Shown piece after piece: positions 13,314 through 36,397 of a stretch of DNA of 43,056 nt. The stretch is taken from the NCBI GenBank assembly GCA_028066245.1, contig JALCBR010000032.1:1-43056 (forward strand). Direction: 5' to 3'. The stretch comes from Pirellulales bacterium. Lineage in GTDB: Bacteria > Planctomycetota > Planctomycetia > Pirellulales > S012-138. Both the position numbers and the translations under genes were made by a program. Position 1 is the first letter of the stretch; the number at the start of each line of letters is the position of its first letter. Below the pieces are notes generated by a model that worked only from the letters and a program-made list of their open reading frames with translations, was not told the DNA's origin and searched no databases.

Positions 13314-13380
13314 GGTCAGTTCCTGTCAGTGGAGGTCTTCGACATCGCGCCGCGGTCCAGCGTTAGCTCAACAGCAACGT

Positions 13381-14745: not shown

Positions 14746-14814
14746 GCTGCGACCTCTTACATGTCAACGGCTCGCACGCTCTGCGGCATGAATAGGAGTT
14801 GCTCGCCGAAGCAG

Positions 14815-14840
14815 AAAAAAGGGCGTCCGGCGACGCCCTT
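14815..14840 (-). terminator. Rho-independent terminator after the epimerase gene
   Basis: A perfect 9-bp stem (AAGGGCGTC 14819-14827 with GACGCCCTT 14832-14840) has a four-base loop, and six A at 14815-14820 give a T-run on the minus strand. It lies 26 bases past the epimerase stop at 14866. It therefore ends the upstream polysaccharide unit and splits the locus into two transcription units. Confidence 0.9.
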
Positions 14841-14865
14841 GGCAGGTGACAATCCCAATTCGGGA

Positions 14866-15855: not shown

Positions 15856-15944
15856 TGATGCTCCCCTCCTTGGGATTGCTGCGGCCGATAGCTCGGCCAT
15901 CCAACGTGATTAATCAGGGCAAGTATTGCTGAATTCCATGCACG

Positions 15945-16823
15945 TTAAGCTGCCTGTTTCTGCGCTATGGCAGACGTGGCATCGTACTTTGCCGTGACAC
16001 AAAGATGCCAACCAAAGTGCTGCTCCAACCAGCGGAACATACGCTGAGGTAGGTAACGGAAGTACCAGACTTTCTTGTATCGATACTCTTTGTAATCCTT
16101 GATCACGTACGGGAAGATGTGATCAACAAGCGTTTCGGTGGTCTTAAAGCCGTACTGCGCCAAGAGCTTGGACATCTCCCGGCCACTGTAGGTGTATGTG
16201 ACTGGGCAGCCAGTCTGCGCCTCTGAATATTTCGCCACCAGCTTGCGAGTCTTCCAGAATTGGCCGAAGCCGTAGCGCATGACAATCCAGTAGACTTTCC
16301 ATGCAAAACGGTAATAGTTCATGACCTTGAGCGTTGTACCTTCTCCGGCATAGTGAGAAAGCTGTTGATAGACTCGCTCCGGATGTGGCGTATGGTGAAT
16401 GACGCCAAATGAGTAGATCAAGTCATACTTTTCAACTGGCACAAAGCTGGTCAACTCTTCCGCATTTCCCGGACAGAAGCGAATTCGGTCCGAAAGGCCG
16501 AAGACTTCCGCACGCTGTTTGGCGACAGCCATCGATTCGTCGGAGAGGTCAACGGTGGTGACCTGCGCCCCGTGGCGAGCAAAGTTGATTGTGTCCGTTC
16601 CAATGCCGCAGCCGATCTCAAGGACCTTCTTGCCGTTCCAGGCGGAAAAATCCGCGAACGCTGGAATGTGCGGCTCGACATAGTACTTCCGCGTTTCAAC
16701 TTCGTTGAAGTACTCCTGCGTGCCAACCTCGCGCGGCGAATGCCGGATATTGCAGGGGCGGCGATTCCAATAGTTGCGGACTGAGTCAATTGGGACCACG
16801 TCAAAACTTGTCTCGTTGGCCAA
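15945..16823 (-). CDS. SAM-dependent methyltransferase (class I)
   Basis: This 292-residue methyltransferase has motif I VLEIGCGIGTDT (about 66-77), an acidic end of strand 2 (TVDLSDESM), and motif IV YDLIYSFGVIHHTPHPE (about 133-149), as in the Methyltransf_11/25 group. The C-terminal half is Tyr/Phe/Arg-rich (YRFAWKVYWIVMRYG, KVWYFRYLPQRMFRWLEQ) and may bind a lipid-linked or membrane-near acceptor. The start is a TTG at 16823 with GAGGAG seven bases upstream. It lies between the nucleotide-sugar dehydrogenase and the epimerase, so a sugar or lipid-linked glycan acceptor is the best inference. Confidence 0.86.
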   Translation of the reverse strand: MANETSFDVVPIDSVRNYWNRRPCNIRHSPREVGTQEYFNEVETRKYYVEPHIPAFADFSAWNGKKVLEIGCGIGTDTINFARHGAQVTTVDLSDESMAVAKQRAEVFGLSDRIRFCPGNAEELTSFVPVEKYDLIYSFGVIHHTPHPERVYQQLSHYAGEGTTLKVMNYYRFAWKVYWIVMRYGFGQFWKTRKLVAKYSEAQTGCPVTYTYSGREMSKLLAQYGFKTTETLVDHIFPYVIKDYKEYRYKKVWYFRYLPQRMFRWLEQHFGWHLCVTAKYDATSAIAQKQAA

Positions 16824-16916
16824 AGCCTGTCTCCTCTACGTGTGCAGGCAACAATTCATGCAAGGATCACGATCGAAAGCTCAACTGCTAAGCTGCGTGG
16901 CGTTGCGATTCCTGGA

Positions 16917-18281
16917 CTAAGCCGCTTTGGCTGTGATGTGTTGCGAGTGCGACTCCGCACCGCCATGAGACCTTGCGACATCGCTCGTTCCCCAAGCTAT
17001 GTAGTTGCACACTTTGGAGAACGCGTCGCGATCCAGGACTCGCCAGCAATCAATAATGGTGCGCTCGCCGACGGCATCTTGTGGCTGGATGGCTTTAAAT
17101 TCCGGGCATGGCAACGTCAACACGGCAACATCCGATTGAGCAACGCAGTCTTCGGGCGTGGACGTGTAATTGAGCGAATCGCCGAAGGCTCGCTGGGCGG
17201 TTTCTGTCGCGGCAGGATCGTATGCGATCACATTCACGCCTGCGGCCAGTAAAGATTCAGCCAACATCAAGCCCTGTGCCTTTTCGACAAAGTTTGTATC
17301 AGGCTTGTAGGCCAATCCGAGAATGCCTGCGGTTCCGCCCCTTGGCAGACGCGACATCACTGCTTGATGCAAGCGTGGCACCTGATGGCGATTGATCTCG
17401 TCAGTCGCCAACGGGAGCGGAGCCGTGACTCCGAGCTGTTGGCACATGGCCGTGATCGCCTTGTTGTCTCGCGGGAAGCAAGGACCGCCATAGCCAACAG
17501 AGCCCTTCAGGTATTTGCGGCCGATCCTCGTATCCAACCCGAGCGCGTTGGTGACGACATCGACATTGCCGTCTTCCAGGCGCTCGCAAATCTCCGCGAG
17601 CATGTTGGCGTAGGAGATCTTTGTTGTGACAAAGGTGTTCAGCGCCAGCTTGGTCAACTCGGCGTTGGCAAAACTCATCCGCTGAACGGCGGCGTCATTT
17701 TCCACAACGCTGGTATAGATGCTTTCCAGCAACTCACCGGAGCGCTCGTCGGACTCGCCAATCAGTGTGAAGTCCGGGCAAAGGTAATCGCGGATGACGC
17801 TGCCCAGAGAGATGAATTCCGGGCTGTAGCAGAGTCCGAAGTCTTCGCCACACTTCTTGCCAGAGATCCGCTCAATTTCCGGCAGGAGTTGATTGCCCGT
17901 CGCTCCCGGCATCACGGTGCTTGTTAGCACCACGACGTGAAACTCATCCTTCTCCGCAATCACTTCCGCCACGGGGCGAATTGCGGACATCACGTAGTCG
18001 AGAGAAAAGAAGCCATCGTCCTGGCTTGGCGTGGGAACGATAAGAAACGTGAAATCGCTTTGCCGAACAGCCGACTTGGTGTCGCATGTCGCGGTCAAGT
18101 TGCTGCCTGACTGCTGTAGCAACTCCTGCAAACCGGGCTCAAAGACTGGAGCTTGACCGGCATTGATCTTGGCGACAAAGTCGGCGTTCATATCGACGCC
18201 AACCACTTGGTGCCCCTTGGATGCAAAGCAAGCCGCCATTGGGGAACCTAGCTTCCCCAAGCCAATCACCGCGATCTTCAT
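16917..18281 (-). CDS. UDP-glucose/GDP-mannose-type nucleotide-sugar 6-dehydrogenase
   Basis: This is an NAD-dependent enzyme of 454 residues that oxidises C6 of a nucleotide sugar to the uronate in two steps. The N-terminal Rossmann motif is IAVIGLGKLGSP (3-14). The central domain has ELTKLALNTF with Lys211 and Asn215, and the catalytic Cys268 lies in GYGGPCFPRDN. A C-terminal UDP-binding domain follows with LGLAYKPDTNFV. The GSVIRDYLCPDF segment differs from the usual Ugd pattern, so the substrate (UDP-Glc, UDP-HexNAc or GDP-Man) is open. ATG 18281 has GGGAG upstream. It supplies an acidic sugar for the locus. Confidence 0.92.
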   Translation of the reverse strand: MKIAVIGLGKLGSPMAACFASKGHQVVGVDMNADFVAKINAGQAPVFEPGLQELLQQSGSNLTATCDTKSAVRQSDFTFLIVPTPSQDDGFFSLDYVMSAIRPVAEVIAEKDEFHVVVLTSTVMPGATGNQLLPEIERISGKKCGEDFGLCYSPEFISLGSVIRDYLCPDFTLIGESDERSGELLESIYTSVVENDAAVQRMSFANAELTKLALNTFVTTKISYANMLAEICERLEDGNVDVVTNALGLDTRIGRKYLKGSVGYGGPCFPRDNKAITAMCQQLGVTAPLPLATDEINRHQVPRLHQAVMSRLPRGGTAGILGLAYKPDTNFVEKAQGLMLAESLLAAGVNVIAYDPAATETAQRAFGDSLNYTSTPEDCVAQSDVAVLTLPCPEFKAIQPQDAVGERTIIDCWRVLDRDAFSKVCNYIAWGTSDVARSHGGAESHSQHITAKAA

Positions 18282-18648
18282 TCTCGCTCCCTCGAGTGAT
18301 CTGAAGGTGTTGTCTATGGGCGCGGTCTAAGTTGAGCGCCCAGGCGGAAAGAGCATCGTGCGCCGGCCATCCTTGGCTGACCATCCCCCCGCTCAACATT
18401 GTTTGTGCAGCGATGTTTAATACAAAACAGAAACTGCCGCAAGACAGGAATGCGTCCGAGGTTGCTGCGTGGCGGGCCTGCGGTCGCTTGCCGTGTGGTG
18501 CTAGCAGCGATTCCGAACCTCACAACGGTTGCCCCCTCTGAATGTTCGCCCCGTTGGCACCCATGCTGTCATGAGAAAGCAAGGACCGTGCTGGGCCTGA
18601 CGGCGAGTGACCGGCAAGATGGAACAACAATCACGATGAACGTTCAAC
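18282..18648. other. Intergenic gap inside the polysaccharide locus
   Basis: About 370 bases lie between the stop of the ABC ATPase gene and the start of the dehydrogenase, both on the minus strand. Short frames are present but carry no motif. There is no clear terminator, so the dehydrogenase may have its own promoter here or be read through from the ABC genes. Confidence 0.4.
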
Positions 18649-19410
18649 TCAAGCGGCAAGCTTGGCTGTCTGCTCCGCCTGTTGTGCCGAGTATGCTGCG
18701 ATAACGTCACTCGGCTTGCCCATCTCCCGAATCGTCCCATGATCCATCCAGATCACACGACTGCACAGCTCTTCCATCGCGTTCAAATCGTGGCTTGCCA
18801 GTACCACCAGGCTTGCCGTCTGGAACATCTCATCCATTCGCTGGCGGGCTTTGGCCAGAAAGGCTTTGTCGCCGGCACCCAAAACCTCGTCCACAATCAA
18901 GATCTCAGGATGGATCGCCGTGGCGATGGAAAAACCCAGCCGCACGATCATGCCTGTTGAGTAATAGCGCAACGGCATGTCCAGATACTCGCCCAATTCG
19001 CTGAAATCCGCGATCTCCTTCATCTTCGGCCCGATCGACCGCGGCGTTTCTCCGAGCAGATACGCCCGGTACTTGATGTTCTCCCAGCCGCTAGCATCAA
19101 GCTCAAATCCCAATGTGACATCAAACAGGGAGCTCGTCCGGCCAACAACCTCACGTTTTCCCGTTGTTGGCGGATAGACACCGGCGATTAACTTGAGCAA
19201 GGTGCTTTTTCCAGCGCCATTGTGGCCGATGACGCCAAGCCGGTCGCCCTCGTGAGCTTCAAAAGAGACATCACGTAGCGCATCAACCGTAATGACCGGA
19301 TTGCGCTTGCGACGAAACATCCCCTTCAGCACATATTCCTTGAGTGTGACTCGCCCGTGCCGGCGAACTTCAAACTGAACGTTGACGTTCTGAAGGGAAA
19401 CCTTGACCAT
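18649..19410 (-). CDS. Polysaccharide ABC exporter, ATP-binding subunit (Wzt/KpsT/TagH type)
   Basis: The ATPase has 253 residues. Walker A is GHNGAGKST (62-70), the signature is the STGM variant at 151-154 (usual in polysaccharide exporters instead of LSGGQ), Walker B is ILIVDEVLG (170-178) and the H-loop is His207 in ASHDLN. The N-terminal extension before Walker A, with KEYVLKGMFRRK, is also typical of the export subfamily. It lacks the C-terminal carbohydrate-binding domain of the longer Wzt proteins. It should power export of a lipid-linked polymer through the permease encoded 52 bases upstream. ATG 19410 (MVKVSLQNVNV) is preferred over an in-frame start at 19443. Confidence 0.93.
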   Translation of the reverse strand: MVKVSLQNVNVQFEVRRHGRVTLKEYVLKGMFRRKRNPVITVDALRDVSFEAHEGDRLGVIGHNGAGKSTLLKLIAGVYPPTTGKREVVGRTSSLFDVTLGFELDASGWENIKYRAYLLGETPRSIGPKMKEIADFSELGEYLDMPLRYYSTGMIVRLGFSIATAIHPEILIVDEVLGAGDKAFLAKARQRMDEMFQTASLVVLASHDLNAMEELCSRVIWMDHGTIREMGKPSDVIAAYSAQQAEQTAKLAA

Positions 19411-19462
19411 GGAAGAGAGCGTGGAGCGCTGGAGTCGCGACAAGCAGGATTGGTATCGAAAG

Positions 19463-20257
19463 CTAGAGATAGAAGATCAATCGTTTTTCCACTTTCGCCA
19501 ACGTCAGGCTGGCGACGGTCACCATCAGCAAAACAAAACCACACGCGTATGAAGTCGCGGCGATTGTGGGAAGCTGGCCGTCAAGGACCGGACGTCGTAG
19601 TAGGTCGAGACATGCCGCCAGTGGATTGATGTCCACAATCCAGCCCAGACCGCGATCGCGCAGCATCTTTGCCGGATAAAAGATGGGTGTCATATAGAAC
19701 AAAGCCTGCATGCCAACTTGAACCAGATGCTGAGTGTCTTGAAACACAACATTGATCACGCCAAAAATGATCGACACCGACCAGCCGAGCGCAAAAAACA
19801 GGACCAAGGTTGGTATCAATGTCCACAGCGTGAGCAAATTACCAAACCCGCTGGTCATCCAAACCAACGCCAACAAGACAATCAACGCCACGGCGAAGTG
19901 AATCGCCATCCCTACCGTCGTCCGTAGCGGATAGATCGCCAATGGTGCGGGGGATTGGCGAATGTAAGCTTCTCCAGCGAAGTAGCATTGGCAGCTTTCC
20001 GTCAGCACCCCGGTGAAGTAGCTCCAAAATGCCAAGCCCGAGAGCACGAATGGCGCATACGAGATAATGTCTTGGCCAAAGAGCTGCGAAAAAACGATAC
20101 AGAATACGATCGTCATCGCGACCGGATGCATCAAGGACCAGCCGATGCCCAGCACGCTTCGCCGGTAGCGCTTGCGCAAGTCAACTTTGACCAGCGACAT
20201 CCAGAAGAATCGCTTGCTCCAGATGTCGCGGAAGTATTGCGCCGAATGGAAGAACAT
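19463..20257 (-). CDS. Polysaccharide ABC-2 exporter, permease subunit (Wzm/KpsM/TagG type)
   Basis: This 264-residue integral membrane protein has about six transmembrane segments. An amphipathic N-terminus (FRDIWSKRFFWMSLVKVDLRKRYRRSVLGIGWSL, about 9-42) is the hallmark interface helix of ABC-2 polysaccharide exporters. The segment QVGMQALFYMTPIFYPA (about 173-189) is also typical. It pairs with the ATPase encoded just downstream. Having it as the first gene of the locus suggests the promoter lies in 20258-20500. No ribosome-binding site is obvious before the ATG at 20257. Confidence 0.92.
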   Translation of the reverse strand: MFFHSAQYFRDIWSKRFFWMSLVKVDLRKRYRRSVLGIGWSLMHPVAMTIVFCIVFSQLFGQDIISYAPFVLSGLAFWSYFTGVLTESCQCYFAGEAYIRQSPAPLAIYPLRTTVGMAIHFAVALIVLLALVWMTSGFGNLLTLWTLIPTLVLFFALGWSVSIIFGVINVVFQDTQHLVQVGMQALFYMTPIFYPAKMLRDRGLGWIVDINPLAACLDLLRRPVLDGQLPTIAATSYACGFVLLMVTVASLTLAKVEKRLIFYL

Positions 20258-20983
20258 GTTGTCTCGACCGCGTTGCGCACCTCAAAACAAACCGCTGGGC
20301 CACGAAGGGCCGGAATCATAGCCGCGGCGCAGCAAGGCGGCAATCGCAACATTTCACGGCTAGCAATGCTGCGCGGCAACACCCGTAGCAATACGAGCGA
20401 TGACCAGACACAGCCAGCGTTGTCAAGAAACGGCTCGTGATCTTCCGCCTAGTGATGCAGATGTTCTACCCATACATCAATATGTTCAACGAACTCTCTC
20501 AGCCCTATTAGCCGCTGAACGCCGGTTGGGTTCTGATGGGCTGACGATCAGCCGTCAACTCATATTCACCCCCTCCTTGCGGGTGGTTTTGGCGAAAGTT
20601 CTCACAGGGGCGCCAACAGTGGTTCCACCAGGCGCGCCACCAGTGTTTTTGACAGTCGCGCCAGGAGTGTTTTTGACAGTCGCGCCAGGAGGGGCGCCAA
20701 CCGTTCCTTGAGCCGTAGCAGGGAACAGCCTGAAGGCAAGTGCCGCTGATAATCTTCGCTTTGGGAGCGCAACGCCCTGTTTTCGAATTGACCGGGAGTA
20801 GTTTCGCCTGAATGCTCGGCCTTGGGCGCGGGGCTGTTTCAGTTCTTCGTCTCAACTCAACTTCAAAGCTCCTTTCCGCGCTGCGATCGCCGCCATGCTC
20901 ATGGCTTGAGTCGGGAACTGCCTTTCGCATAATCAGAGGAGAGTCAGTTCTTGGCTATGCTTCCTTCTGTATAGACAATCGCC
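20258..20983. other. Intergenic region with tandem repeat array
   Basis: About 725 bases separate the divergent permease and enoyl-CoA hydratase genes. Besides the array at 20612-20707, there is a 6-bp hairpin (GGCTGA-CGA-TCAGCC, about 20539-20553). On the minus strand, AAGGAGGGGG lies ahead of an ATG whose third codon is a stop, so no gene starts there. A plus-strand frame at 20400-20711 and a minus-strand frame at 20508-20930 both cross the array; neither is called as a gene. Confidence 0.5.
20612..20707. repeat. Degenerate 12-bp tandem repeat array, eight units
   Basis: Eight consecutive 12-base units start at 20612 and every 12 bases after. Two alternate as a perfect 24-base duplication (TTTGACAGTCGC + GCCAGGAGTGTT type units). 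On the plus strand, in the frame of a 103-codon ORF, the units read as tetrapeptides of A-P-x-V and F-L-T-V type, ending at a stop two codons after the array. On the minus strand they read as W-R-D-C/Q-K-H-x. The period is a multiple of three, so the array could be the tail of a short coding region, but no start is supported. Confidence 0.8.
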
Positions 20984-21793
20984 ATGACCAACGAACCTAA
21001 CAACGGAACAGGCGTTGAAGATATCAAGCTTGACGTTCAAAGTCATGCTGCGGTCGTGACGTTAAATCGAGCCGACCAGCGGAATGCTTTGCGGCGAAAG
21101 ACGATCGATCAGCTTAGCCAGGTCCTGGAGAACATTCGCTTGGACAAGGGAGTGCGAGCGGTCATCCTCACCGGCGCCGGTTCGGTGTTCTGCGCCGGGA
21201 TGGACCTGAAAGAGATGGAAGCCGCGGCCGATGCGGACAACGCCCACGACCTGTGGCACGAGGACGCGTTGATCTTTCACGACCTGCTGCTGCAGATGTT
21301 GCGGTTTCCCAAGCCTTTGATTGCGGCGGTTAACGGGCCGGCGCTCGCTGGAGGGACGGGGCTATTCCTCGGTTGCGATCTCGTCGTCGCCTCGGAGACT
21401 GCGTTCGTCAGCCTGCCGGAACCGCTGCGAGGAATTGTCGCGGCCATGGTGACGCCGCTGTTGGCGTTTCGGATTGGTGCGGGCCAATCTGCGCGGCTGC
21501 TGCTGACCGCGGATCGGTTTGACGCGATGGAATCACACCGCATCGGCTTGTTTCACGAGGTGACACCGCCGGATCAGTTGGTTGCTCGGGCGGCGGAGAT
21601 CGCAGCTTCTTGCGCGAAGTGCGCGCCGGAGGCCTTGATGCTGACCAAGAAAATGCTTAACGAGACCGTCGGCGAGCACCTGACAACCTTGCTGGGAGCC
21701 GCGGCGGCGGTCAGCGCATCCGCGCGCACAACGGAAGCCGCCGCTGAAGGATTGGCCGCGTTCCGAGAAAAGCGCGCGCCGGATTGGAAATAG
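20984..21793 (+). CDS. Enoyl-CoA hydratase/isomerase family protein
   Basis: This crotonase-fold protein has 269 residues, the usual length. The oxyanion-hole segments are FCAGMDLKEME (about 66-76) and AVNGPALAGGTGLFLGCDLV (about 107-126), followed by ASETAFVSLPEPLRGIV, where a Glu of the family's active site is expected. The C-terminal helix has ACKE-like FREKRAPDWK. The family acts on acyl-CoA thioesters in fatty-acid or amino-acid degradation, or in isomerase and hydrolase side branches. No other beta-oxidation gene is near, so the substrate is unknown. No strong ribosome-binding site precedes the ATG at 20984. Confidence 0.9.
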   Translation: MTNEPNNGTGVEDIKLDVQSHAAVVTLNRADQRNALRRKTIDQLSQVLENIRLDKGVRAVILTGAGSVFCAGMDLKEMEAAADADNAHDLWHEDALIFHDLLLQMLRFPKPLIAAVNGPALAGGTGLFLGCDLVVASETAFVSLPEPLRGIVAAMVTPLLAFRIGAGQSARLLLTADRFDAMESHRIGLFHEVTPPDQLVARAAEIAASCAKCAPEALMLTKKMLNETVGEHLTTLLGAAAAVSASARTTEAAAEGLAAFREKRAPDWK

Positions 21794-21901
21794 CGCCGGC
21801 GGTCTCACTCAGTACACACTTTTTCGCCACACAGATCCACGATCCTCCTCGCCACAACTTTTCCTTTCTGCTGACTTTCAACCCTACCGATTTGCCGAAG
21901 T

Positions 21902-22639
21902 ATGAACGAGATTCAGTCGCTTGATATTATTGCCGTGGGGGCCCACCCGGACGACGTGGAGATTGCCTGCGGCGGCACGCTTGCCCAATTGGTGCGGCAA
22001 GGGTATCGCGTGGGCATCATCGATCTGACTGATGGAGAGCCGACGCCCGGTTCACCCGGTCCCGAAGTTCGGCTTGCCGAAGCCCAAGCTGCCGCCGACG
22101 TGTTGGGCGTTCATGTTCGCAAAACGCTTGACCTTCCCAATCGAAAGCTCTTCGACACGTACGAGAACCGTGTGTGCCTGGCCAAAGAGTTTCGCCGATA
22201 TCGTCCCAAGCTGGTGGTGGGCTTTGGCGAGAAGACGCCGCTGGCTTCGCCTGACCACTGGCAGGCAATGCAGATCACGGACGCCGCCGTGTTTTATTCG
22301 CGGCTGACCAAGTGGGATGAGGAATTCGATCACCTGCCACCGCATACCATTCAGGCTCAACTTTACTATTCGCTGGCGTTCTACTCACTGGAGATGCCGG
22401 CGGCCGCAGGGCATTTCGTCTCCGATATTTCTGATACTCTGGAGACCAAGATTGAGTCAGTCATCTGCTACCAGACTCAGTTCGAGAAACGCCAGGAGTT
22501 CATCGCCAAACGTATTGAAGCGGTGGCGCTCAACACCGGTATGACGGCAGGGTTCAAGGCCGGTGAGTTATTCCTTACCGCCAAGACTCTCGGCACGAAC
22601 GACATCATGCGTACGGTCTTGGGTGAACCTTCGAATTAA
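21902..22639 (+). CDS. PIG-L family deacetylase, BshB1-like
   Basis: This 245-residue zinc-dependent LmbE/PIG-L de-N-acetylase has the zinc-binding motif A-HPDD-VE at His15 to Asp18 and a third ligand in SPDHWQAM (His119). The ground plan [18 protein letters not shown], then [13 protein letters not shown] and [14 protein letters not shown], is that of BshB1, which removes acetyl from GlcNAc-malate in bacillithiol synthesis. BshA and BshC are not in the window, so another N-acetyl-sugar substrate remains possible. It lies 108 bases after the enoyl-CoA hydratase gene on the same strand. Confidence 0.88.
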
Positions 22640-25137: not shown

Positions 25138-27897
25138 ATGAACGCACTCTACCGGCTGCACGCACGCCTGCTTCAGAAGCACAGCTTTGCGATTGTCTGC
25201 GTCTTTGGACTGTTGCTGGGGCTGATCCTGCCTGGAGCGTATTTCGCGGTCGTCAGCAATACCAACGACGTCACGGACTGGCTTCCGGACAAGTATCCGG
25301 AAACCCGTGACCTGCGCTGGTATCAACAATATTTCAAAGCCGGCAGTGACCACATCGTCATCATCTCCTGGGACGGGTGCACGCTGACTGACGATCGCGT
25401 TGAGCTGTATGCCAACAAGCTGCGCAATTGCCCCCAGATCGACTCGGTCGTCACTGGGCAGGAGCTGGTCGATCAGATCTCTCAGACATTAGATGGCAGC
25501 GAAGATCCCCGCAGCGAAGCAATCAACCGACTGCAAGGCTCTTTGATTGGGCCGGACTACGTGCATGGTCTGAAGTTGACCGATGATGCCCAAGGTCAGG
25601 CCGTGATTACGGCGGTCGCGGTGGGTTCAGCCGCTGAATCGGCCGGCCTGCACGTGGGACAAACCATCACCCGCATCAATCGTACGGCAACCTCCAACAC
25701 GGCCGAGGCTCTGGCCGTGCTGGAATCCACCTACACGGCTGAAGACGCCGACACCGGGCAGCAGTGGCTCTCCATTTACACGGACGGCGGCGACATCCCG
25801 TATCGCTGGCAGTGGAGCGGCACGCGTCCGGGCCGGCAAACGGCCATCTTGGCAACGCTTTCCGCGGACGGCCGCGACGAAAAGAAGCTGGAATCCGCGC
25901 TGAATGAAATCCGCCGTATTGGTGAGCAAGAGTGCGCCATCGTTGGTCCAGACCAACGCATCCGCTTGGGTGGACCTTCGGTGGATAACGTCGCCATTGA
26001 CCAGGAGGGCAAACGAACTCTGGCGGTGGTCGCCACGCTGTCGTTCGTCGTCGGCCTGGGAATGTGCTGGCTGTGTTTCCGTGATATCAAGATCACGTTC
26101 CTTGTGTTCTTCGTGTCGATTTTCAGCGAAGCCACAAGCTTGGCCATCGTCTATTACTCGGGAGTGCCGGTCAACGCGATCTTGCTGTCGATGCCGACGC
26201 TGATCTACGTACTGACGATCTCCGGCGCGATTCACATCGTCAACTACTATCGCGATTCGGTGGTTGAGACTGGCATCAAGGACGCGCCGCATCAAGCCAT
26301 CCGCAAAGGATTCGTTCCGTCATCGCTGTCGGCCGTTACCACGGCGATGGGGATGTCGTCGCTGTTGATTGCCGACCTGCGGCCAATTCGCTTGTTCGGC
26401 GGTTTTTCGGCACTCGCGGTGGTTTCCACGTTGATGTGGCTGTTCTTGCTGCTGCCGGCGGTACTGCAACTTTCGCCGCTTTCTGCGCGGACGGTTCGCA
26501 GATTGAAGGTTCGGGCCAAGCGTCCGTTGCAGATCGACCGCATGTGGACGCGGATTGGACGTGGCGTGGTGGCCCGGCCGACAGTGATCTTCCTGCTCTT
26601 CGCCGGCATCTTGTTTGGCGTGGGCGCAGGCGTCCACAAGCTCCAGAGTTCAATCAACTTGATGAAGCTCTTCAGCGATGATGCGCCGATCATTCATGAC
26701 TATGTCTGGCTGGAATCCCGCCTGGGACCGCTGGTGCCGATGGAAGTTGTCGTCCGATTTGACGAGGCCAATTTTTCCGAGGATGAAACCACCGGGCGGC
26801 ACGGCGTCGGAATCGCTCGTCGCCTGATGCTTGTCAACGAGATCCGCAATGCGCTGGAGGAAATGCCTGAGGTGGACGCGACGATGTCCGCCGTGACGTT
26901 TGTTCCGGAGATTCCCACCGGAACTAGCGGACGAGCCGTTGCGACAATTCGCCGCATCAACAAAGAGCTTGGCAAGAGCTTGGGCGATCTCGAGTCCGCC
27001 GGCTGGATTGCGCAGTCAGGCGATGAGCAGCTCTTCCGCATCAGCCTGCGGCTGGGAGCGTTCAGCGGCATTGATTACGGCAGCTTCGTCACCAACGTTC
27101 GTGAAGCCGTGACTCAAAACGCGCTGGATGACGAAGTCAAAACGCACCTGGAAACCTTTGCCAAAGCGGGCATGATCGACGAGGCAGGTGGCCTGGATGT
27201 GACCTATACCGGCGTTGTGCCGATTGTCTACAAGTCACAATCCGAGTTGATGAATGGGCTGCGAGAAAGCTACCTCTTCGCGTTCGCTATGATCGCCGGG
27301 ATGATGGTGTTGTTGATCTGGCCGACTGCCGGCGGGCTGAAAGCCTTCCCTGCGGCCGCGTTGATGATGATTCCCAACATCTTCCCCACCGCCATGGTGT
27401 TTGGAACCATGGCCTGGATGAACCACGCCGTGGATATCGGCTCCATGATGACCGCCAGCATTGCCCTGGGCGTTGCTGTTGATGATACCGTGCATTACCT
27501 GTCCTGGTTCCGCCGTGGTCTGCACCGCGGTCTCACACGGCGTGATTCCGTCTACGACGCGTACTCGCATTGTGCCAGAGCGATGACGCAGACAACACTC
27601 GTCGCCGGGTTTGGCATCGCCATGCACGTCTTTAGTACATTCACGCCGACCATGATGTTTGGCGTGCTGATGATTCCGCTGTTGGGTTCTGCCCTGGTGG
27701 GCGACCTCATCATGTTGCCGGCGATGTTGGTGAGCCCCTTTGGCCGCATTGTCTGCCGCCGCGAGAAGAAATCAACAGCCGTACCGCTCAGTGAAGATGG
27801 CCCGACCGGCGATGAACTAGCCATCGTGCCGGCGCCCACACTTGCGGCTCACCGCCCAGAGCGGAGAGTTCGCATGGACCAGCGTTTTGGTACGTGA
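25138..27897 (+). CDS. RND/MMPL-family exporter with PDZ-like insertion
   Basis: This 919-residue protein of the RND superfamily (MMPL/SSD-like, COG1033 type) has TM1 at about 17-38. Two further membrane blocks follow, at about 293-470 (with ILLSMPTLIYVLTISGAIHIVNYYRDS) and at about 708-880 (with IALGVAVDDTVHYLSWFRRGL). The conserved Asp pair sits in VAVDDT, usual for proton coupling. The first external loop contains a segment at about 150-225 (GSAAESAGLHVGQTITRIN) that fits a PDZ domain, which is unusual. Such proteins move lipids or hydrophobic compounds across the inner membrane. No membrane-fusion or outer-membrane partner is adjacent. The start has no clear ribosome-binding site. Confidence 0.9.
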   Translation: MNALYRLHARLLQKHSFAIVCVFGLLLGLILPGAYFAVVSNTNDVTDWLPDKYPETRDLRWYQQYFKAGSDHIVIISWDGCTLTDDRVELYANKLRNCPQIDSVVTGQELVDQISQTLDGSEDPRSEAINRLQGSLIGPDYVHGLKLTDDAQGQAVITAVAVGSAAESAGLHVGQTITRINRTATSNTAEALAVLESTYTAEDADTGQQWLSIYTDGGDIPYRWQWSGTRPGRQTAILATLSADGRDEKKLESALNEIRRIGEQECAIVGPDQRIRLGGPSVDNVAIDQEGKRTLAVVATLSFVVGLGMCWLCFRDIKITFLVFFVSIFSEATSLAIVYYSGVPVNAILLSMPTLIYVLTISGAIHIVNYYRDSVVETGIKDAPHQAIRKGFVPSSLSAVTTAMGMSSLLIADLRPIRLFGGFSALAVVSTLMWLFLLLPAVLQLSPLSARTVRRLKVRAKRPLQIDRMWTRIGRGVVARPTVIFLLFAGILFGVGAGVHKLQSSINLMKLFSDDAPIIHDYVWLESRLGPLVPMEVVVRFDEANFSEDETTGRHGVGIARRLMLVNEIRNALEEMPEVDATMSAVTFVPEIPTGTSGRAVATIRRINKELGKSLGDLESAGWIAQSGDEQLFRISLRLGAFSGIDYGSFVTNVREAVTQNALDDEVKTHLETFAKAGMIDEAGGLDVTYTGVVPIVYKSQSELMNGLRESYLFAFAMIAGMMVLLIWPTAGGLKAFPAAALMMIPNIFPTAMVFGTMAWMNHAVDIGSMMTASIALGVAVDDTVHYLSWFRRGLHRGLTRRDSVYDAYSHCARAMTQTTLVAGFGIAMHVFSTFTPTMMFGVLMIPLLGSALVGDLIMLPAMLVSPFGRIVCRREKKSTAVPLSEDGPTGDELAIVPAPTLAAHRPERRVRMDQRFGT

Positions 27898-29943: not shown

Positions 29944-30252
29944 GTGTTTGCAGAGCTTTGGCGGCAGTTCTATTTTCGCGAGATCCAGCACGGCACAGGT
30001 TTGGAACCTGCATGCGCATGGTAGCCCCGCTCATTCGACAGGATTCTGAGGAAGCGATATCTTAGCAATCACGGGTTCTCTCGCCAGGGTGCGTGCTTGA
30101 GCCGCCGGCTCAACGTCTCACGGAATGGGATTTGCTTTGACAATGATTACGTGAGCTCTGACAGTTTGTGAACGATCGGCCGGTTTTCAGTGAACTTAAC
30201 AAAGCACCTGCCGCTGATCGTGAATCACTTTTTTGACGACGCAAGGAAATCC
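29944..30252. other. Divergent intergenic region
   Basis: About 310 bases lie between the unknown protein gene and the YdjY lipoprotein gene. A TTGACA lies at about 30137-30142, but no matching -10 element stands at the right distance. An in-frame upstream ATG/GTG extends both neighbours, without ribosome-binding sites. Nothing else is visible. Confidence 0.4.
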
Positions 30253-31341
30253 ATGAACACTGCTGCCGGAATCGCCAGGTTGATCTGTTGTGTCACCGCG
30301 TGGTGTGGAATCTTGCAGCTGTGCGGCTGCGAGGATCCGTCAACCGTTGATTCAACAGAGCCAGGCTCAGCTCAGCGGCAAACTCAGAACAAGGAGCCGC
30401 AAGGCGATCACGTGACCGCCCAACAGGCTGAAGCCAAGTTGCCGAACGATAGCGGTTTGGTTGGCACCGGCGCGGGGAATGATGAAATCAAAGATGATAA
30501 ATCTGAAGAGGGCGATGGATCTCAAGTCGAGACTAAAGACAACGCCGCCGGGCAATCAGAACAGGGAGATCAGCAGGACAAACAATCGGACGATGCTCAA
30601 TCTGATCACCAGGATCAAGAACACGGACGAGCAGAGATTGACTGGGATGCGCCCATCAAGCAGCCGCCGGAGGCTGAGGGCATGGCCGCGCCGTTTGAAA
30701 AAGCGGATGTGTGGGTTGATCTGGAGAAGAAGAAAATTGTGATGGCCGGCAGAGTGTGCCAGAGTGCCGGATTTTTGGAGTTCTTCGCTACGCTCCGCGG
30801 CTACCAGGAACATGAAGCGATCGTCACTGTTCGCACAAAGTCAAGCTTCATCCATGGGCTCTTGCTGGCCATTGGCGTTGAGCCCGGACGCCCTGTGCAA
30901 TACCGACCGGAGTTCCGTGCCGCCGAAGGTCCGGAGATCAACGTGACCGTTTACTGGACGGATAAAGACGGCAAGCGTCAATCCGCAAAAGCCCAAGATT
31001 GGATCAGGAACGCGGAAACCGGCAAGGCCATGGAGCACCCATTTGTGTTCGCGGGCAGCAAGTTCGTCTCAACGGGCGAAGGCCAACCAGAACACTACAC
31101 CGCTGATGATGGCTACTTGATTTGCGTTTCCAACTTCCCTACCGCCATGCTCGATCTCCCAATCGCCAGCACGGACTCAAACGCAAGATTGATGTTCGAG
31201 GCATTTGAAGGCCGAGTCCCGGCAGTCGGGACGGAGATCACGGTTGTACTCGAACCGAAGGACAAGCCAGCCGACAAAGGCGATGCAGACGCCAGCAAAG
31301 GTGGAGCGGACAAAAGCGCATCAGCCGGCGATGACGGCTGA
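30253..31341 (+). CDS. YdjY-domain lipoprotein
   Basis: This 362-residue lipoprotein has a signal peptide ending in a lipobox-like L-C-G-C at about residue 26, after which residues 27-150 are an acidic Gln/Asp/Glu-rich linker. The folded part (about 155-335) matches the YdjY pattern: VWVDLEKKKIVMAGRVC, LEFFATLRGYQEHEAIV, SSFIHGLLLAIGVEPG and GYLICVSNFPTAMLDLP. The function of YdjY is unknown; in planctomycetes such proteins are common beside redox proteins. A Lys/Asp/Gly-rich tail ends the protein. ATG 30253 has AAGGA six bases upstream; an earlier start at 30190 lacks this and would bury the signal peptide. It is convergent with the giant heme/copper protein. Confidence 0.88.
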   Translation: MNTAAGIARLICCVTAWCGILQLCGCEDPSTVDSTEPGSAQRQTQNKEPQGDHVTAQQAEAKLPNDSGLVGTGAGNDEIKDDKSEEGDGSQVETKDNAAGQSEQGDQQDKQSDDAQSDHQDQEHGRAEIDWDAPIKQPPEAEGMAAPFEKADVWVDLEKKKIVMAGRVCQSAGFLEFFATLRGYQEHEAIVTVRTKSSFIHGLLLAIGVEPGRPVQYRPEFRAAEGPEINVTVYWTDKDGKRQSAKAQDWIRNAETGKAMEHPFVFAGSKFVSTGEGQPEHYTADDGYLICVSNFPTAMLDLPIASTDSNARLMFEAFEGRVPAVGTEITVVLEPKDKPADKGDADASKGGADKSASAGDDG

Positions 31342-31387: not shown

Positions 31388-34300
31388 TTATTGCCGGTAG
31401 ACGCTGCTTCCCGGATCACCGCCGGAAAGCACGTACGCGAGAATGTCCAGGATCTCCTCACGCGTGAATGTATTCATCAGCTTCTCCGGCATCAGGCTCA
31501 ATTCGGCTTTGAATTGTTCCTCAATGTTGGATTTGTCGATCCGTTTAGGCTCGATCAGCGGGTTTGAAGTCACGCGGACATAATCATCCGTTTCTTCCAC
31601 AATCACGCCGGTCACCAATTGGCCGTCGGCGGTTTCAAAGATGTACGAGGTGAACTGCTCGTTGATGGTGTGAGACGGCTCAATGATGTCGCGAAGGACC
31701 TGTTCGCGGGTTTTCTTGCCGTTGGCCAGTTGTTCCTGCAGGTCAAACAGGTTGGGCCCAACTTCGCCGCCCTCGTTCCCCATCTTGTGACACTGAGCAC
31801 AGCTCGCCGCCGTGAACGCTTCTTTGCCGGCGTCAAAGCTCTGCGTTGAGCCCACGCTGGCAACGTCCTCAATGAGGTCGGCAAATGTCCAATCGCGGAC
31901 GAATGGCCGGATGGCCACGTCCTCAGAAACATCAGGCTGGAGATCAGCGAGCGGGATCGCAGACAGATCCGGCACAACGTACATCACGCCATTCATCCGC
32001 CTCCAATGTCCCGGAAACGTACAAACGTAAGGGTACTCGCCCGGTGTTGAGGGGGCGGTGAACTGCAATCGCTGGCTTGCTCCGGGCGGCAGCAAGCGCG
32101 TGCCGAGCATGACCTCAGACAGGTTCGGCGTAAAACCCTTCGCGAACGCATCGGGTTGTGTCGCCATCCGCTCGGCCGCCTCGCCAACTTTCTGCATTGC
32201 CCCGGGCGCGGTGATCAGCAGGTTGTGCGACATGATGTCGGAGTTCTCCAACACCAGTTCGACAGGCTTGCCCGCCTCAACATAGATCCGGGATCGATTG
32301 TAAATCATCTTGTGTGGCACCGTACGAATGTGCACGACGTTCACACCCAACTCGCCCAATTCCTTGCGGAGTGCTGTTGCTTCCGCGGAGGGCAACCGCA
32401 TGGCCATTTCATTGGCCAGCCCCAGCGCGTCGATCACTTCCGGCTCGGTGCGACGTTCCACCGGGATTGACGTCACGTGGTCCTTCAAAGTCTTAATCAG
32501 CGGACGAAGTTCATCCGCCGGCCAGAAGCCTGGCTGAATGCGGCTGATTGCGGAAATGGCCGTCGCGCGGAGTTTACCGCGATTGACATAGCCAGCCAGC
32601 GTGCGGAACGAGTCCTCTTCATGCCCAGGAATAGAGACCACCGCGTACATGGCCGCGCGCAACATGGAAGACACCGGGTCTTCCGGCAGCGCAATGTTCA
32701 CCTGTCGCGGCGGCGCGGGATTGTTGGCCTGCCGAAAGATCGCCCGCCGGTTCTCATCCAGCACGGTGACACGAAAGTTGTCCAAACGCTTGGCAAATTG
32801 CCCGTTAGCTTCGTCTCGGTTCCAGACGACAATCGAGTCAATCGGCACGGACCGTTTGAGGTCCAGTTCCCACCACGGATTGCGCGTGTTCTCGCGCGTG
32901 TGCGTTTGGCCATTGTCTTGAAAAGTGCCGCTGTAGTTTCCGTCGATGGCGCGGTTCGCTCGACCGCTGTGGGCTCTCGTTGATTGGGACGCGGTCCCGT
33001 CACGTGCGACATTGACTCCGTTGGAGAAGACTTCAACTTCGGCCAAAGTCAATGTGCGGCGGTTCCCCGGCAGATCAATCCGGACGTAGCGTCCCACAGG
33101 GGTTTGGCTTTGCAACGCCTGAATTTCTGGGGGTAATTCTTTGAGCAGCGGCGCTACGTGTTCGTACGTCTTCGCTCGCATTGCTTCGTGATGTAAGAGT
33201 GGGATTGCGCTGATCAAATCATCAAGCCGCTCAGGATTGGCCATCCCCGCTTGCCAGGCTTCTTCGAAATCGTGTGAACCACTGATGAAGGCCACCCAGG
33301 CAACTTGGCGAGTGATGGCCCGCGCGCCTTGCTGGGCCATGGTCAGTAATTGCTCTTTGCGGTTCATCAATCCCTGCGGAGGTTTCATTGTCAGCAGGTG
33401 AGCGAAATCATTGAGCACCCGACCGGCGAACTCGTCGTCGCTGGCGTCCAGGCGATTGATCGCGGCCAGCAGTTCCGTCAGTTCGTCTGTACCATTGAGT
33501 TCGGCCAGACCGGTCAGGGCCTTCTTGCGGTAGTCCTCCAGAATGTTTGGTCGGGCGAGCATTTCCTCATAGACTCGTTGGGTGCGGTGCATGCGCAGCA
33601 AGTCTGATGTGGACGTCTCCGCCAAGATGTAATCCAAGCCAGCGGGGTTGTCTTCGCAAAAGGGCTCGCCCGCCGCCACAGCCGCTGCCCAGTGTGGCTT
33701 CAGCCCACGAATGGTTTCCTTGAGCGCGAAATTCAGGAACCGATCGCGGGGGTGATTGAGCGCCAGCAAGGCCACCTCGGCCGCGGCGACATCATTGAAG
33801 AAGCTACACGCACGCACGGCTTCTAACCGCACGCGAGGAAACTCATCCTGGGCCAAGTTCTTCAGCAGCTCCAGCGGGTCATCCACGCGATCACGCCAAT
33901 AGCACAAGACACGTGTCGCCGCCGCGCGGGCACGCGGCTCATCTGACGTCAACATCCGCCGCAGCAAGTCTTGATCGACCACATCATGCTGCTGATGGAT
34001 CCAAAGAGCTTCCAACAGGTTGTGTTCGTACTTAGGGGAGGATCTATCGAGGTCGGCTGTCCAAGTGCTCGCCGCCGCGATCACATCGGCACTTGCGCGG
34101 TGAGAGAGTTCCAGCCGTGCGCGGTAGCGCTCACGATCGTTGTTGGACTTCAAGACCTCTAACAACTCCGGAATCGTGGCTCCGGCAATCCTGGGAGGAT
34201 CCAACAATGCGCGATCTTTGAAGGAGATTCGATACACACGGCCGTGCGCAATGTCGCGATTGGGATCGCGAATGTGATGCTGCATGTGGCCGATGATTGG

Positions 34301-36397
34301 GTTGTGCCAGTCCAAGAAATACACCGCACCGTCCGGGCCGATTTCAACATCGACGGGACGAAAATGTCGATGTGACGAGACAACCAACGGTTCGACTTCG
34401 ACGGCAGAGAAACCGGACCCGTCCTCGGAAACCTTGTAGTTCTGAATGCCCTGGAATCCAATCACGTTGGCGATCAGATAGTTGCCCTGCAGTTCATCCG
34501 GGAAGTGCGCGCTGGAAAGGAACTCTGTTCCGCCTGCGGGCCGCGTTCTTTGCTGAAAGAACGGGAAATAGCCGCGGTGCTTGGCCGGATGTTCCAGATA
34601 GGTTGAAAACGGCGCGGCATAATAGTTGACGTTGCCGGTGCCATCGGTGACGAAATCTTGTCCCCAATAGTCAAAGATGTGTCCATGGGGATTGGCGAAT
34701 CCATACGGAACATAGACTTCAGTCTTCCACGTCCGCGGCTCAAAGCGGAACACGGCCGCGTTAGCGCTACGGACGGTTGACCGCCAAGGTGTTTCAATCT
34801 GTGAGTGGTGAAACGTGCCTTCCTGAAAATACAGTGCGCCTCCGGGACCAATGACGAAGCTGTTAAGCGCGTGATGCGTATCGGCGGAATCAATGCCGTG
34901 CAAAACGCGTTGGCGAACATCAGCGATGCTGTCGCCGTCCGTGTCTTCTAGGAAAAGCAAATCCGGCTGTTGCCCGACGAAGACGCCGCCATTCCAGAAC
35001 TCCAGGCCTGTCGGCACGTGAAGTCCGTCGGCAAACACGGTGCACTTGTCCGCTTTGCCGTCTCCGCTGGTATCTTCCAGGATGAGGATTTTGTCCGCCA
35101 TCTCATCCTTGGGCTTCCAGTGCGGATAGCTAGGCATCACGGCCACCCACAATCGGCCCTGCATGTCAAAGGCCATCTGCACAGGATTGGCCAACTCGGA
35201 GAACATCTCTTCCGACGCGAACAGGTTCACCTCAGCGCCCGGATAAGGAGTCATCATGCTGATGGCTTCCTCAGCAGGAACAAACTCATGCTTGCCACCG
35301 GGCAAAGGTCCCGGAAAGTTTGTCCTGACCGGAATGAAATCCGGTGTGTTGCTATCATCGGCCACAAAGGGCTTGTCCGGTGTGGCGTTTCCGGCGGCGA
35401 TGGCCCAGATCTTCTCGTCGCGATTGGCGGTCATCACGTCCAGGACTTGCATCTCGCGCTGCATGACGTCCCAGTTGGTGATGTCATCCTCATACTTGAG
35501 CGAGGACCGCCCGCCGTAGACGTTGTAGCCATCCACAGTGCGGTAGCGGTGAAACCAGTGGAAGTTCTTGTCCACCACGGCAGAACGTAGATAGTCCAAT
35601 TGCTCTTGGTTGATATCCCTCAGTCTTTGGCGATCGCGGTCGGGCAGCAACGTTTCAATGACACAGTCGGCAACCATCATATTGCCGCTGGTGTTGAGAT
35701 GGATGCCGTTAATCGTCGCTGGCGAACTCAGCACCGCATAGGACTCTTGAGTGAACCGGAACAAGTCGACAAACGGAACGCCCTTGGCTGTGGCAACTTC
35801 GGCCATGGCGTGAGCGTACATGCCAATCCGTTGATTGGCTTCGCGCGTATTGGGCAGGCTCTCGCTTTTCAGGTCTTCATGCGCAATCGGAGAAAACAGC
35901 ACGATCCTGGCGTTACCTCGGCCGCTATAGTTTTGTGACTGCGTATGGTCAATCAGGTTTTCCAGCTCGCGACGGAATTGGGGCAACCCCTCTGCGCCGG
36001 CAAATGACTCGTTGTAGCCAAAGAACGCAAAGACAACGTCTGCCTTGCTGTGTTTGAGGTGGTCGTCTGGTGAGCCGAAATTGGCTGATCGCATTCGGTG
36101 GTTGATCTCGTCTCCAGAAAATCCCAGGTTGCGGAAGGAGAGCTTGAGTTCCGGCGCTACGATCTGGAAAGCCGTCTCCAGCCAGCCGTCATGCTGCATT
36201 CGCTCAGCGAGCGTATTCCCGATCAAGCAGACCGAATCTCCCTGGGTAAAGAGTTCGGCAACCTGTGCCTGAGCAACCTCCGGTGACGACGCACCAGCAG
36301 AAAGATCCGCCCGAGGAGGGGCGGTTGCGTCCAAAAAGCAAACGACCGTCGCCAGGACTAGGACAGATAGAGTCAAGGAGGCAAACCGTGCAGTCAT
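31388..36397 (-). CDS. Secreted multimodule protein: SGNH-like, propeller, HEAT, discoidin-like, cupredoxin, cytochrome c
   Basis: This is a 1669-residue exported protein with a signal peptide at 1-25. Modules in order: SGNH/GDSL-like (about 45-250); six-bladed propeller of the PVC membrane-bound dehydrogenase type (about 380-735, TYLEHPAKHRG); HEAT-like repeats (about 740-960); discoidin/F5-8C-like sandwich (about 1095-1240); azurin-type cupredoxin (about 1365-1480) with copper ligands His1391, Cys1459, His1464 and Met1468; and a c-type cytochrome (about 1510-1665) with C-A-Q-C-H at 1533-1537. The SGNH part is degenerate: G-N-T (60-62) replaces G-D-S and N-G-I-H (230-233) replaces D-x-x-H, while G-Y-N-E is kept. 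A complete copper-to-heme path suggests periplasmic oxidation of a sugar-like substrate. Substrate and electron acceptor are unknown. Confidence 0.93.
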   Translation of the reverse strand: MTARFASLTLSVLVLATVVCFLDATAPPRADLSAGASSPEVAQAQVAELFTQGDSVCLIGNTLAERMQHDGWLETAFQIVAPELKLSFRNLGFSGDEINHRMRSANFGSPDDHLKHSKADVVFAFFGYNESFAGAEGLPQFRRELENLIDHTQSQNYSGRGNARIVLFSPIAHEDLKSESLPNTREANQRIGMYAHAMAEVATAKGVPFVDLFRFTQESYAVLSSPATINGIHLNTSGNMMVADCVIETLLPDRDRQRLRDINQEQLDYLRSAVVDKNFHWFHRYRTVDGYNVYGGRSSLKYEDDITNWDVMQREMQVLDVMTANRDEKIWAIAAGNATPDKPFVADDSNTPDFIPVRTNFPGPLPGGKHEFVPAEEAISMMTPYPGAEVNLFASEEMFSELANPVQMAFDMQGRLWVAVMPSYPHWKPKDEMADKILILEDTSGDGKADKCTVFADGLHVPTGLEFWNGGVFVGQQPDLLFLEDTDGDSIADVRQRVLHGIDSADTHHALNSFVIGPGGALYFQEGTFHHSQIETPWRSTVRSANAAVFRFEPRTWKTEVYVPYGFANPHGHIFDYWGQDFVTDGTGNVNYYAAPFSTYLEHPAKHRGYFPFFQQRTRPAGGTEFLSSAHFPDELQGNYLIANVIGFQGIQNYKVSEDGSGFSAVEVEPLVVSSHRHFRPVDVEIGPDGAVYFLDWHNPIIGHMQHHIRDPNRDIAHGRVYRISFKDRALLDPPRIAGATIPELLEVLKSNNDRERYRARLELSHRASADVIAAASTWTADLDRSSPKYEHNLLEALWIHQQHDVVDQDLLRRMLTSDEPRARAAATRVLCYWRDRVDDPLELLKNLAQDEFPRVRLEAVRACSFFNDVAAAEVALLALNHPRDRFLNFALKETIRGLKPHWAAAVAAGEPFCEDNPAGLDYILAETSTSDLLRMHRTQRVYEEMLARPNILEDYRKKALTGLAELNGTDELTELLAAINRLDASDDEFAGRVLNDFAHLLTMKPPQGLMNRKEQLLTMAQQGARAITRQVAWVAFISGSHDFEEAWQAGMANPERLDDLISAIPLLHHEAMRAKTYEHVAPLLKELPPEIQALQSQTPVGRYVRIDLPGNRRTLTLAEVEVFSNGVNVARDGTASQSTRAHSGRANRAIDGNYSGTFQDNGQTHTRENTRNPWWELDLKRSVPIDSIVVWNRDEANGQFAKRLDNFRVTVLDENRRAIFRQANNPAPPRQVNIALPEDPVSSMLRAAMYAVVSIPGHEEDSFRTLAGYVNRGKLRATAISAISRIQPGFWPADELRPLIKTLKDHVTSIPVERRTEPEVIDALGLANEMAMRLPSAEATALRKELGELGVNVVHIRTVPHKMIYNRSRIYVEAGKPVELVLENSDIMSHNLLITAPGAMQKVGEAAERMATQPDAFAKGFTPNLSEVMLGTRLLPPGASQRLQFTAPSTPGEYPYVCTFPGHWRRMNGVMYVVPDLSAIPLADLQPDVSEDVAIRPFVRDWTFADLIEDVASVGSTQSFDAGKEAFTAASCAQCHKMGNEGGEVGPNLFDLQEQLANGKKTREQVLRDIIEPSHTINEQFTSYIFETADGQLVTGVIVEETDDYVRVTSNPLIEPKRIDKSNIEEQFKAELSLMPEKLMNTFTREEILDILAYVLSGGDPGSSVYRQ

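What the first reader, a model, noticed from the sequence alone, without database searches (positions are those of the whole stretch)
31388..36397. Single polypeptide joining SGNH-like, propeller, HEAT, discoidin-like, type-1 copper and heme c modules
The order gives a binding part (discoidin-like), a likely dehydrogenase-type propeller, and two successive redox centres with complete ligands (His1391/Cys1459/His1464/Met1468 and C-A-Q-C-H). This looks like a self-contained extracellular oxidoreductase that binds polymer and passes electrons through copper to heme. Parts of this set are known in PVC bacteria; the full combination is worth attention.
Basis: partly seen in the sequence, partly recalled or inferred. 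Interest (0 to 1): 0.72.

Follow-up and report, generated by a model that had tools for sequence, protein, structure and literature searches.

The report
Planctomycete multidomain copper-heme propeller protein
This is one member of a widespread but barely studied family of large secreted planctomycete proteins that join a sugar-dehydrogenase-like propeller to a sugar-binding part, a blue-copper part and a heme part; it probably acts on carbohydrates and passes electrons on, and the architecture is common rather than unique.

Summary
The ORF 31388-36397(-), 1669 aa, has every module claimed, in the order claimed, supported by Pfam/NCBIfam profiles, AlphaFold models and fold searches. All four copper ligands and all heme ligands (CAQCH plus Met1636) are invariant in 30 homologues. 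Refinements: the 'discoidin' is an F-type lectin; the propeller is six-bladed and closest to PQQ sugar dehydrogenases; the cupredoxin is auracyanin-like; the heme module is the planctomycete TIGR02603 type seen in Kustd1711. The SGNH domain lacks the catalytic serine in almost all members and carries an almost invariant 'ERMQHDGW' motif instead.

It is not a one-off. NCBI already names the family ('PVC-type heme-binding CxxCH protein', TIGR02604/TIGR02603). I found 27 other single ORFs with the same five-module order, and relatives with the carriers split, lost or swapped. A tested TIGR02604-HEAT-TIGR02603 relative was reported as a beta-galactosidase, so 'dehydrogenase' is likely but unproven. 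Half of the PQQ-site residues are conserved; the arginine that activates PQQ is not.

Verdict: real, correctly read, new member of a known, uncharacterised kind. Best mechanism: carbohydrate oxidoreductase relaying electrons to copper and heme (about 0.5).

The parts
31388..36397 (-). whole gene, 1669 aa, TIGR02604/TIGR02603 family protein
36320..36397 (-). N-terminal secretion signal (about residues 1-26, MTARFASLTLSVLVLATVVCFLDATA)
   Evidence: read by eye from the sequence; no signal-peptide program was run
35633..36250 (-). SGNH-like domain, residues about 50-255; the GDS nucleophile block reads G60-N61-T62 followed by the motif ERMQHDGW; N129 and H233 kept, N230 in place of the triad Asp
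   Evidence: Pfam GDSL_2; fold match to acetylxylan-esterase-type SGNH structures; conservation
34193..35272 (-). six-bladed propeller, residues 376-735 (DUF7133/TIGR02604); invariant H508/H509, N569, R680
33113..34180 (-). HEAT-type helical repeat region, residues about 740-1095
   Evidence: Pfam HEAT_2; model pLDDT mostly above 85; alphaRep/HEAT matches
32693..33100 (-). F-type lectin (fucolectin-like) domain, residues 1100-1235
32348..32680 (-). second, short all-helical stretch, residues about 1240-1350
   Evidence: helices 142-251 of the C-part model
31970..32344 (-). type-1 copper (auracyanin-like cupredoxin) domain, residues 1352-1476; ligands H1391, C1459, H1464, M1468
31412..31855 (-). 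heme c domain TIGR02603, residues about 1515-1662; C1533-A-Q-C1536-H1537 and axial M1636, with a beta insertion between them like the 'nose' domain of Kustd1711
   Evidence: PMC11791136

Best explanation
A Sec-exported carbohydrate-active oxidoreductase of the TIGR02604/TIGR02603 family. Shown (by sequence and model): SGNH-derived domain, six-bladed sugar-dehydrogenase-fold propeller, HEAT spacer, F-type lectin, type-1 copper domain, His/Met heme c domain, in one chain. Inferred: the lectin or a PA14-type module holds the protein on a glycan; the propeller oxidises a sugar or glycan at the pocket around H509/N569/R680; electrons pass to the copper and then to the heme, and on to a soluble or membrane cytochrome; the SGNH-derived domain is not a serine hydrolase but helps shape or cap the substrate site. 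The cofactor of the propeller is left open: PQQ or another one.
For: The top ten fold matches of the propeller are PQQ sugar dehydrogenases and fungal AA12 pyranose dehydrogenases (Z 25-28), above the DFPase/SMP30 lactonases at about 24. Profile alignment to E. coli aldose sugar dehydrogenase YliI (E 6.6e-9) puts invariant H509 on the catalytic His, N569 on the Asn of the RNP motif and R680 on the C-terminal Arg. Cu and heme ligands are invariant in 31 sequences. Across 86 cores, carriers are exchanged but usually present: Cu+heme in 45, Cu only in 15, a classical heme c in 5 Bacteroidota, heme in the next gene in 5, Cu+heme in the next gene in 1. A Ketogulonicigenium propeller-only relative is preceded by a c-type cytochrome gene. 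Sulfatase-family genes directly flank seven homologues, another sulfatase overlaps the start of L073 and glucuronoyl esterases lie near L031 and L073; PSCyt proteins were linked to polysaccharide use before (PMC5615132). The fungal quinohemoprotein CcPDH combines an AA12 propeller, a cytochrome and a carbohydrate-binding module and shows propeller-to-heme electron transfer (PMC4332668).
Against: Three of six sGDH PQQ-site positions differ, including the Arg that activates PQQ (A568). No PqqC and no PqqE above cut-off in the genome (the PqqC test had no positive control). A related protein was reported as a hydrolase (PMC5342196). Several SGNH-propeller genes have no carrier in the same or an adjacent gene. 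Domain placement in the C-terminal model is uncertain (pTM 0.52), so the Cu-heme distance is unknown. The lectin's fucose-binding loop looks altered in this member.
Confidence: 0.5

Rival explanations
1. The propeller is a glycoside hydrolase (beta-galactosidase-like), and the copper and heme modules serve another purpose, such as delivering electrons to a partner or sensing redox state.
For: Lac161_ORF7 (AGW45552; TIGR02604-HEAT-TIGR02603) was purified and released glucose from lactose, Km 1.8 mM, kcat 13 per s (PMC5342196). Eighteen propeller homologues of it were counted in Paludisphaera borealis as putative glycoside hydrolases (PMC5352709). Some SGNH-propeller genes have no carrier nearby.
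Against: That protein was made in E. coli, where trace LacZ or missing heme are concerns, and I know of no independent repeat; its similarity to this protein was not measured because its sequence was not at hand. The closest folds are dehydrogenases.
Confidence: 0.2
2. A true PQQ-dependent sugar dehydrogenase, with the sGDH mechanism (His base, PQQ, Ca2+) and intramolecular relay to copper and heme. (A narrower version of the best explanation.)
For: Fold rank; H509, N569 and R680 invariant. Fungal AA12 enzymes bind PQQ while also lacking the sGDH Lys377 and Arg408 equivalents (PMC6881789).
Against: The Arg228/Arg430 equivalent is Ala, Pro, Leu or Thr throughout the family; PQQ biosynthesis was not detected in the genome.
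Confidence: 0.2
3. A non-catalytic surface or periplasmic redox scaffold: the propeller and SGNH-derived domain bind ligands, and the copper and heme pass electrons between partner proteins.
For: The SGNH nucleophile is lost; there are many repeat and binding modules.
Against: The dense invariant polar residues of the propeller (D506, H508, H509, N569, R680 and others) point to catalysis.
Confidence: 0.1

Closest known systems
NCBI 'PVC-type heme-binding CxxCH protein' (TIGR02604 with TIGR02603)
   Same: Both models match above their cut-offs; same propeller-HEAT-heme order
   Different: Members with this name need not have the SGNH-like or copper domain; three paralogues in the same genome have TIGR02604 and TIGR02603, and the SGNH profile found nothing in the pieces of them held here
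Full-length homologues in Pirellulaceae, Gemmataceae and other Planctomycetota (e.g. L007, L008, L009)
   Same: All five modules in the same order in one ORF, about 45-53% identity
   Different: The carbohydrate module is replaced by a PA14-like one in L041 and L065 and absent in L068; heme absent in L091, L095, L096
Lac161_ORF7 (AGW45552), reported beta-galactosidase
   Same: TIGR02604-HEAT-TIGR02603 architecture (PMC5342196)
   Different: No SGNH, lectin or copper module reported
CcPDH, fungal AA12 pyranose dehydrogenase with AA8 cytochrome and CBM1
   Same: Works-like: sugar-dehydrogenase propeller, cytochrome and carbohydrate-binding module in one secreted chain; same propeller fold (6jt5, Z 25.4)
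   Different: Heme b not heme c, no copper domain, keeps the PQQ-activating Arg; no direct sequence family link found here
Kustd1711, anammox diheme cytochrome c
   Same: Its C-terminal heme domain with the inserted 'nose' beta domain matches ours
   Different: Two hemes, no other modules
Auracyanin
   Same: Closest cupredoxin fold, Z 19.4, same kind of ligand set
   Different: Stand-alone protein of phototrophic Chloroflexota electron transport

Membership tests
TIGR02604/TIGR02603 PVC-type heme-binding CxxCH protein | TIGR02604 score above the curated cut-off | tested here: met
   219.3 bits against 122.2
TIGR02604/TIGR02603 PVC-type heme-binding CxxCH protein | C-terminal TIGR02603 domain with CxxCH and distal Met | tested here: met
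   92.9 bits against 68.15; C1533, C1536, H1537, M1636 invariant
Type-1 copper protein (auracyanin/azurin family) | cupredoxin fold with His, Cys, His, Met ligands | tested here: met
   Z 19.4 to 6kol; four ligands invariant
Type-1 copper protein (auracyanin/azurin family) | bound blue copper | not testable with these tools
   needs spectroscopy
PQQ sugar dehydrogenase (sGDH/Asd) | six-bladed propeller of that fold | tested here: met
   3a9g Z 27.8, 2g8s Z 25.4
PQQ sugar dehydrogenase (sGDH/Asd) | PF07995 (GSDH) score above the gathering score | tested here: not met
   11.4 bits against 25
PQQ sugar dehydrogenase (sGDH/Asd) | catalytic His, PQQ-activating Arg, Asn, Lys377 and Arg406/Arg408 equivalents | tested here: not met
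   His, Asn and one Arg kept; activating Arg, Lys and second Arg replaced
SGNH/GDSL hydrolase | fold and Pfam score | tested here: met
   GDSL_2 55 bits against 32.9; Foldseek TMt about 0.7
SGNH/GDSL hydrolase | Ser nucleophile in GDS and Asp in DxxH | tested here: not met
   T62 and N230; across 72 homologues the Ser position is T/A/G/V/E, with Ser in 5
F-type lectin | sequence family | tested here: met
   3cqo 1.1e-33, 2j1r 4.9e-17
F-type lectin | fucose-binding HX24-27-RXDX4-R/K motif (motif from my own knowledge) | tested here: not met
   H and R kept, but RDEANGQFAK has Glu for Asp and two extra residues; the strict motif is matched in only 6 of the lectin-bearing relatives
TIGR02604 beta-galactosidase (AGW45552 group) | lactose hydrolysis | not testable with these tools
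   reported for one relative only (PMC5342196)

The most novel reading that the evidence does not exclude
The SGNH-derived domain, stripped of its serine nucleophile and given an almost invariant ERMQHDGW motif, forms a joint active site with the propeller, making a new bipartite glycan-oxidising (or oxidative glycan-cleaving) enzyme class that feeds electrons through copper to heme.
Probability: 0.12. Interest if true: 0.65.

Novelty: new member of a known kind. Interest (0 to 1): 0.36.

Why it matters
PVC bacteria carry many of these cytochrome-tagged propeller proteins and the function of most is unknown. A member with the whole chain from glycan binding to heme in one polypeptide is a good test object: if substrate reduces the heme, it would show that these bacteria attack polysaccharides by oxidation and would explain why such genes often lie beside sulfatases. 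If it does not, the only reported activity (hydrolysis) would gain weight. The lost serine with a new conserved motif in the SGNH domain is the least expected feature; I found no description of it in the papers I could search.

Tried and rejected
Uniqueness of the module order: rejected, 27 other single ORFs carry it. Active SGNH esterase: rejected as the default, nucleophile absent; I checked loci from an unbiased phylum search too, because one retrieval pattern was ERMQHDGW itself. Operon partners in the window: none of ten neighbouring genes has a relative beside the homologues. PQQ synthesis as support: no PqqC and no PqqE above cut-off, not decisive because the PqqC control set rang nowhere and E. 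coli also has Asd. Papers on TIGR02604 by name: only one found. Sequence profile search of the SGNH-propeller-HEAT part against PDB chains listed no sugar-dehydrogenase propeller; the fold search did. Promoter and terminator scans gave nothing above chance.

Full report
What is there. The minus-strand ORF 31388-36397 encodes 1669 aa. Profile searches place an SGNH domain, DUF7133/TIGR02604 propeller, HEAT repeats, an F5/F8-type module, a plastocyanin/azurin-type copper domain and a cytochrome c in that order. NCBI's curated models TIGR02604 and TIGR02603 both score well above cut-off, so under NCBI's scheme it would be called 'PVC-type heme-binding CxxCH protein'.

Structure. An AlphaFold2 model of residues 46-1108 from 44 window and homologue sequences has pLDDT 92 and pTM 0.87. 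The propeller's best matches are PQQ-dependent sugar dehydrogenases (3a9g Z 27.8, 2ism 26.2, 2g8s 25.4) and fungal AA12 enzymes (6i1q 26.3, 6jt5 25.4), with DFPase and SMP30 lactonases just below at about 24, so fold alone does not separate dehydrogenase from lactonase. The model of residues 1100-1669 has pLDDT 86 but pTM 0.52: domains are reliable, their arrangement is not. Its copper domain is auracyanin-like (Z 19.4, rmsd 1.3 A). Its heme domain matches the second domain of anammox Kustd1711 with its beta insertion; that protein has unusually high heme potentials of about +350 mV tuned by calcium (PMC11791136).

Active-site residues. Aligning the propeller profile with E. coli aldose sugar dehydrogenase YliI (E 6.6e-9) places H509 on the catalytic His, N569 on the Asn of the RNP motif and R680 on the C-terminal Arg; all are invariant wherever the region is present. 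The PQQ-activating Arg is A568 (Ala, Pro, Leu or Thr in the family), the Lys is I646 and the second Arg is V682. AA12 enzymes also lack the sGDH Lys and second Arg (PMC6881789), so the main departure is the activating Arg. The PQQ reading is possible, not established. The mapping of sGDH numbers onto YliI rests on the shared motifs and my own knowledge.

SGNH domain. The fold and Pfam score are those of SGNH hydrolases, but the GDS block reads G60-N61-T62; over 72 homologues the Ser position is Thr, Ala, Gly, Val or Glu, with Ser in five, and Asn replaces the triad Asp in most. What is conserved instead is ERMQHDGW. The same holds in loci found by an unbiased phylum search. I read this as a repurposed SGNH domain.

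Lectin. The 'discoidin-like' module is an F-type lectin (FBP32 1.1e-33). The fucose-binding loop is altered in this member, so its ligand is uncertain. L041 and L065 carry a PA14-like module in its place (my reading of the alignment), consistent with an exchangeable carbohydrate-binding part.

Distribution. Of 73 related loci, 27 carry all five modules in order in one ORF and three more lack only the lectin; in a sample of 294 genomes of the phylum 124 had a match, many to the propeller only. A tree of 86 SGNH-propeller cores shows Cu+heme in 45, Cu only in 15, classical heme c in five Bacteroidota, heme in the next gene in five, Cu+heme in the next gene in one, and no carrier found in 15, some of them on truncated contigs. 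Verrucomicrobial members often carry the lectin at the N-terminus and no heme. The core is constant; binding and carrier modules move. In the window's genome there are four TIGR02604/TIGR02603 proteins.

Context. In the window no neighbour is shared with homologues. Elsewhere, genes of a sulfatase family directly flank L031, L041, L054, L058, L065, L067 and L074 (three members of the cluster checked by Pfam), another sulfatase overlaps the start of L073, and glucuronoyl esterases lie near L031 and L073. He et al. linked such cytochromes to polysaccharide use in Verrucomicrobia and described their function as unknown (PMC5615132).

Function. Best reading: a carbohydrate oxidoreductase with built-in copper and heme carriers, working like the fungal quinohemoprotein CcPDH (PMC4332668). 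The serious rival is hydrolysis, because a purified TIGR02604-HEAT-TIGR02603 protein released glucose from lactose (PMC5342196). Neither has been tested for this protein. Electron transfer from copper to heme is inferred from adjacency and conserved ligands only.

Novelty. A new member of a known, named, uncharacterised kind. The full architecture was not found described in the papers searched, but it is common in genomes. The lost nucleophile and the ERMQHDGW motif deserve a note.

Noticed in passing
residues 60-72 of the ORF (window 36182-36220) and all SGNH-bearing homologues: SGNH domain without its serine nucleophile but with an almost invariant ERMQHDGW motif; possible repurposed active site.
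   Followed up: partly
L045-L047, L050, L051, L053-L055: Verrucomicrobial relatives carry the F-type lectin at the N-terminus, before the SGNH domain, and end after the copper domain with no heme.
   Followed up: partly
L048, L052, L056, L061, L063: Bacteroidota relatives carry a short C-terminal heme c (CI[ST]CH) and no copper or lectin module.
   Followed up: partly
L041:12775-15261, L065:12847-15300, L058:10866-12314, L067:4616-6910: Sulfatase-family genes directly beside SGNH-propeller genes.
   Followed up: partly
window 30190-31341 (+): Convergent gene next to the finding encodes a low-complexity-rich protein with a YdjY domain (NF040466, 185 bits).
   Followed up: no
window 8302-10212 (+): SelB (selenocysteine elongation factor) gene, with no tRNA in the window.
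   Followed up: no
window 12210-22639: Surface-polysaccharide type cluster: FkbM methyltransferase, sugar epimerase/dehydratase, UDP-sugar dehydrogenase, ABC-2 transporter, PIG-L deacetylase.
   Followed up: no
window 25138-27897 (+): MMPL-family transporter with a PDZ domain.
   Followed up: no
G000 genome (contigs C57, C59, C77, C87, C94, C113, C156, C159): Nine PF06439 (3-keto-disaccharide hydrolase) matches, a possible partner activity if propellers make 3-keto sugars.
   Followed up: no
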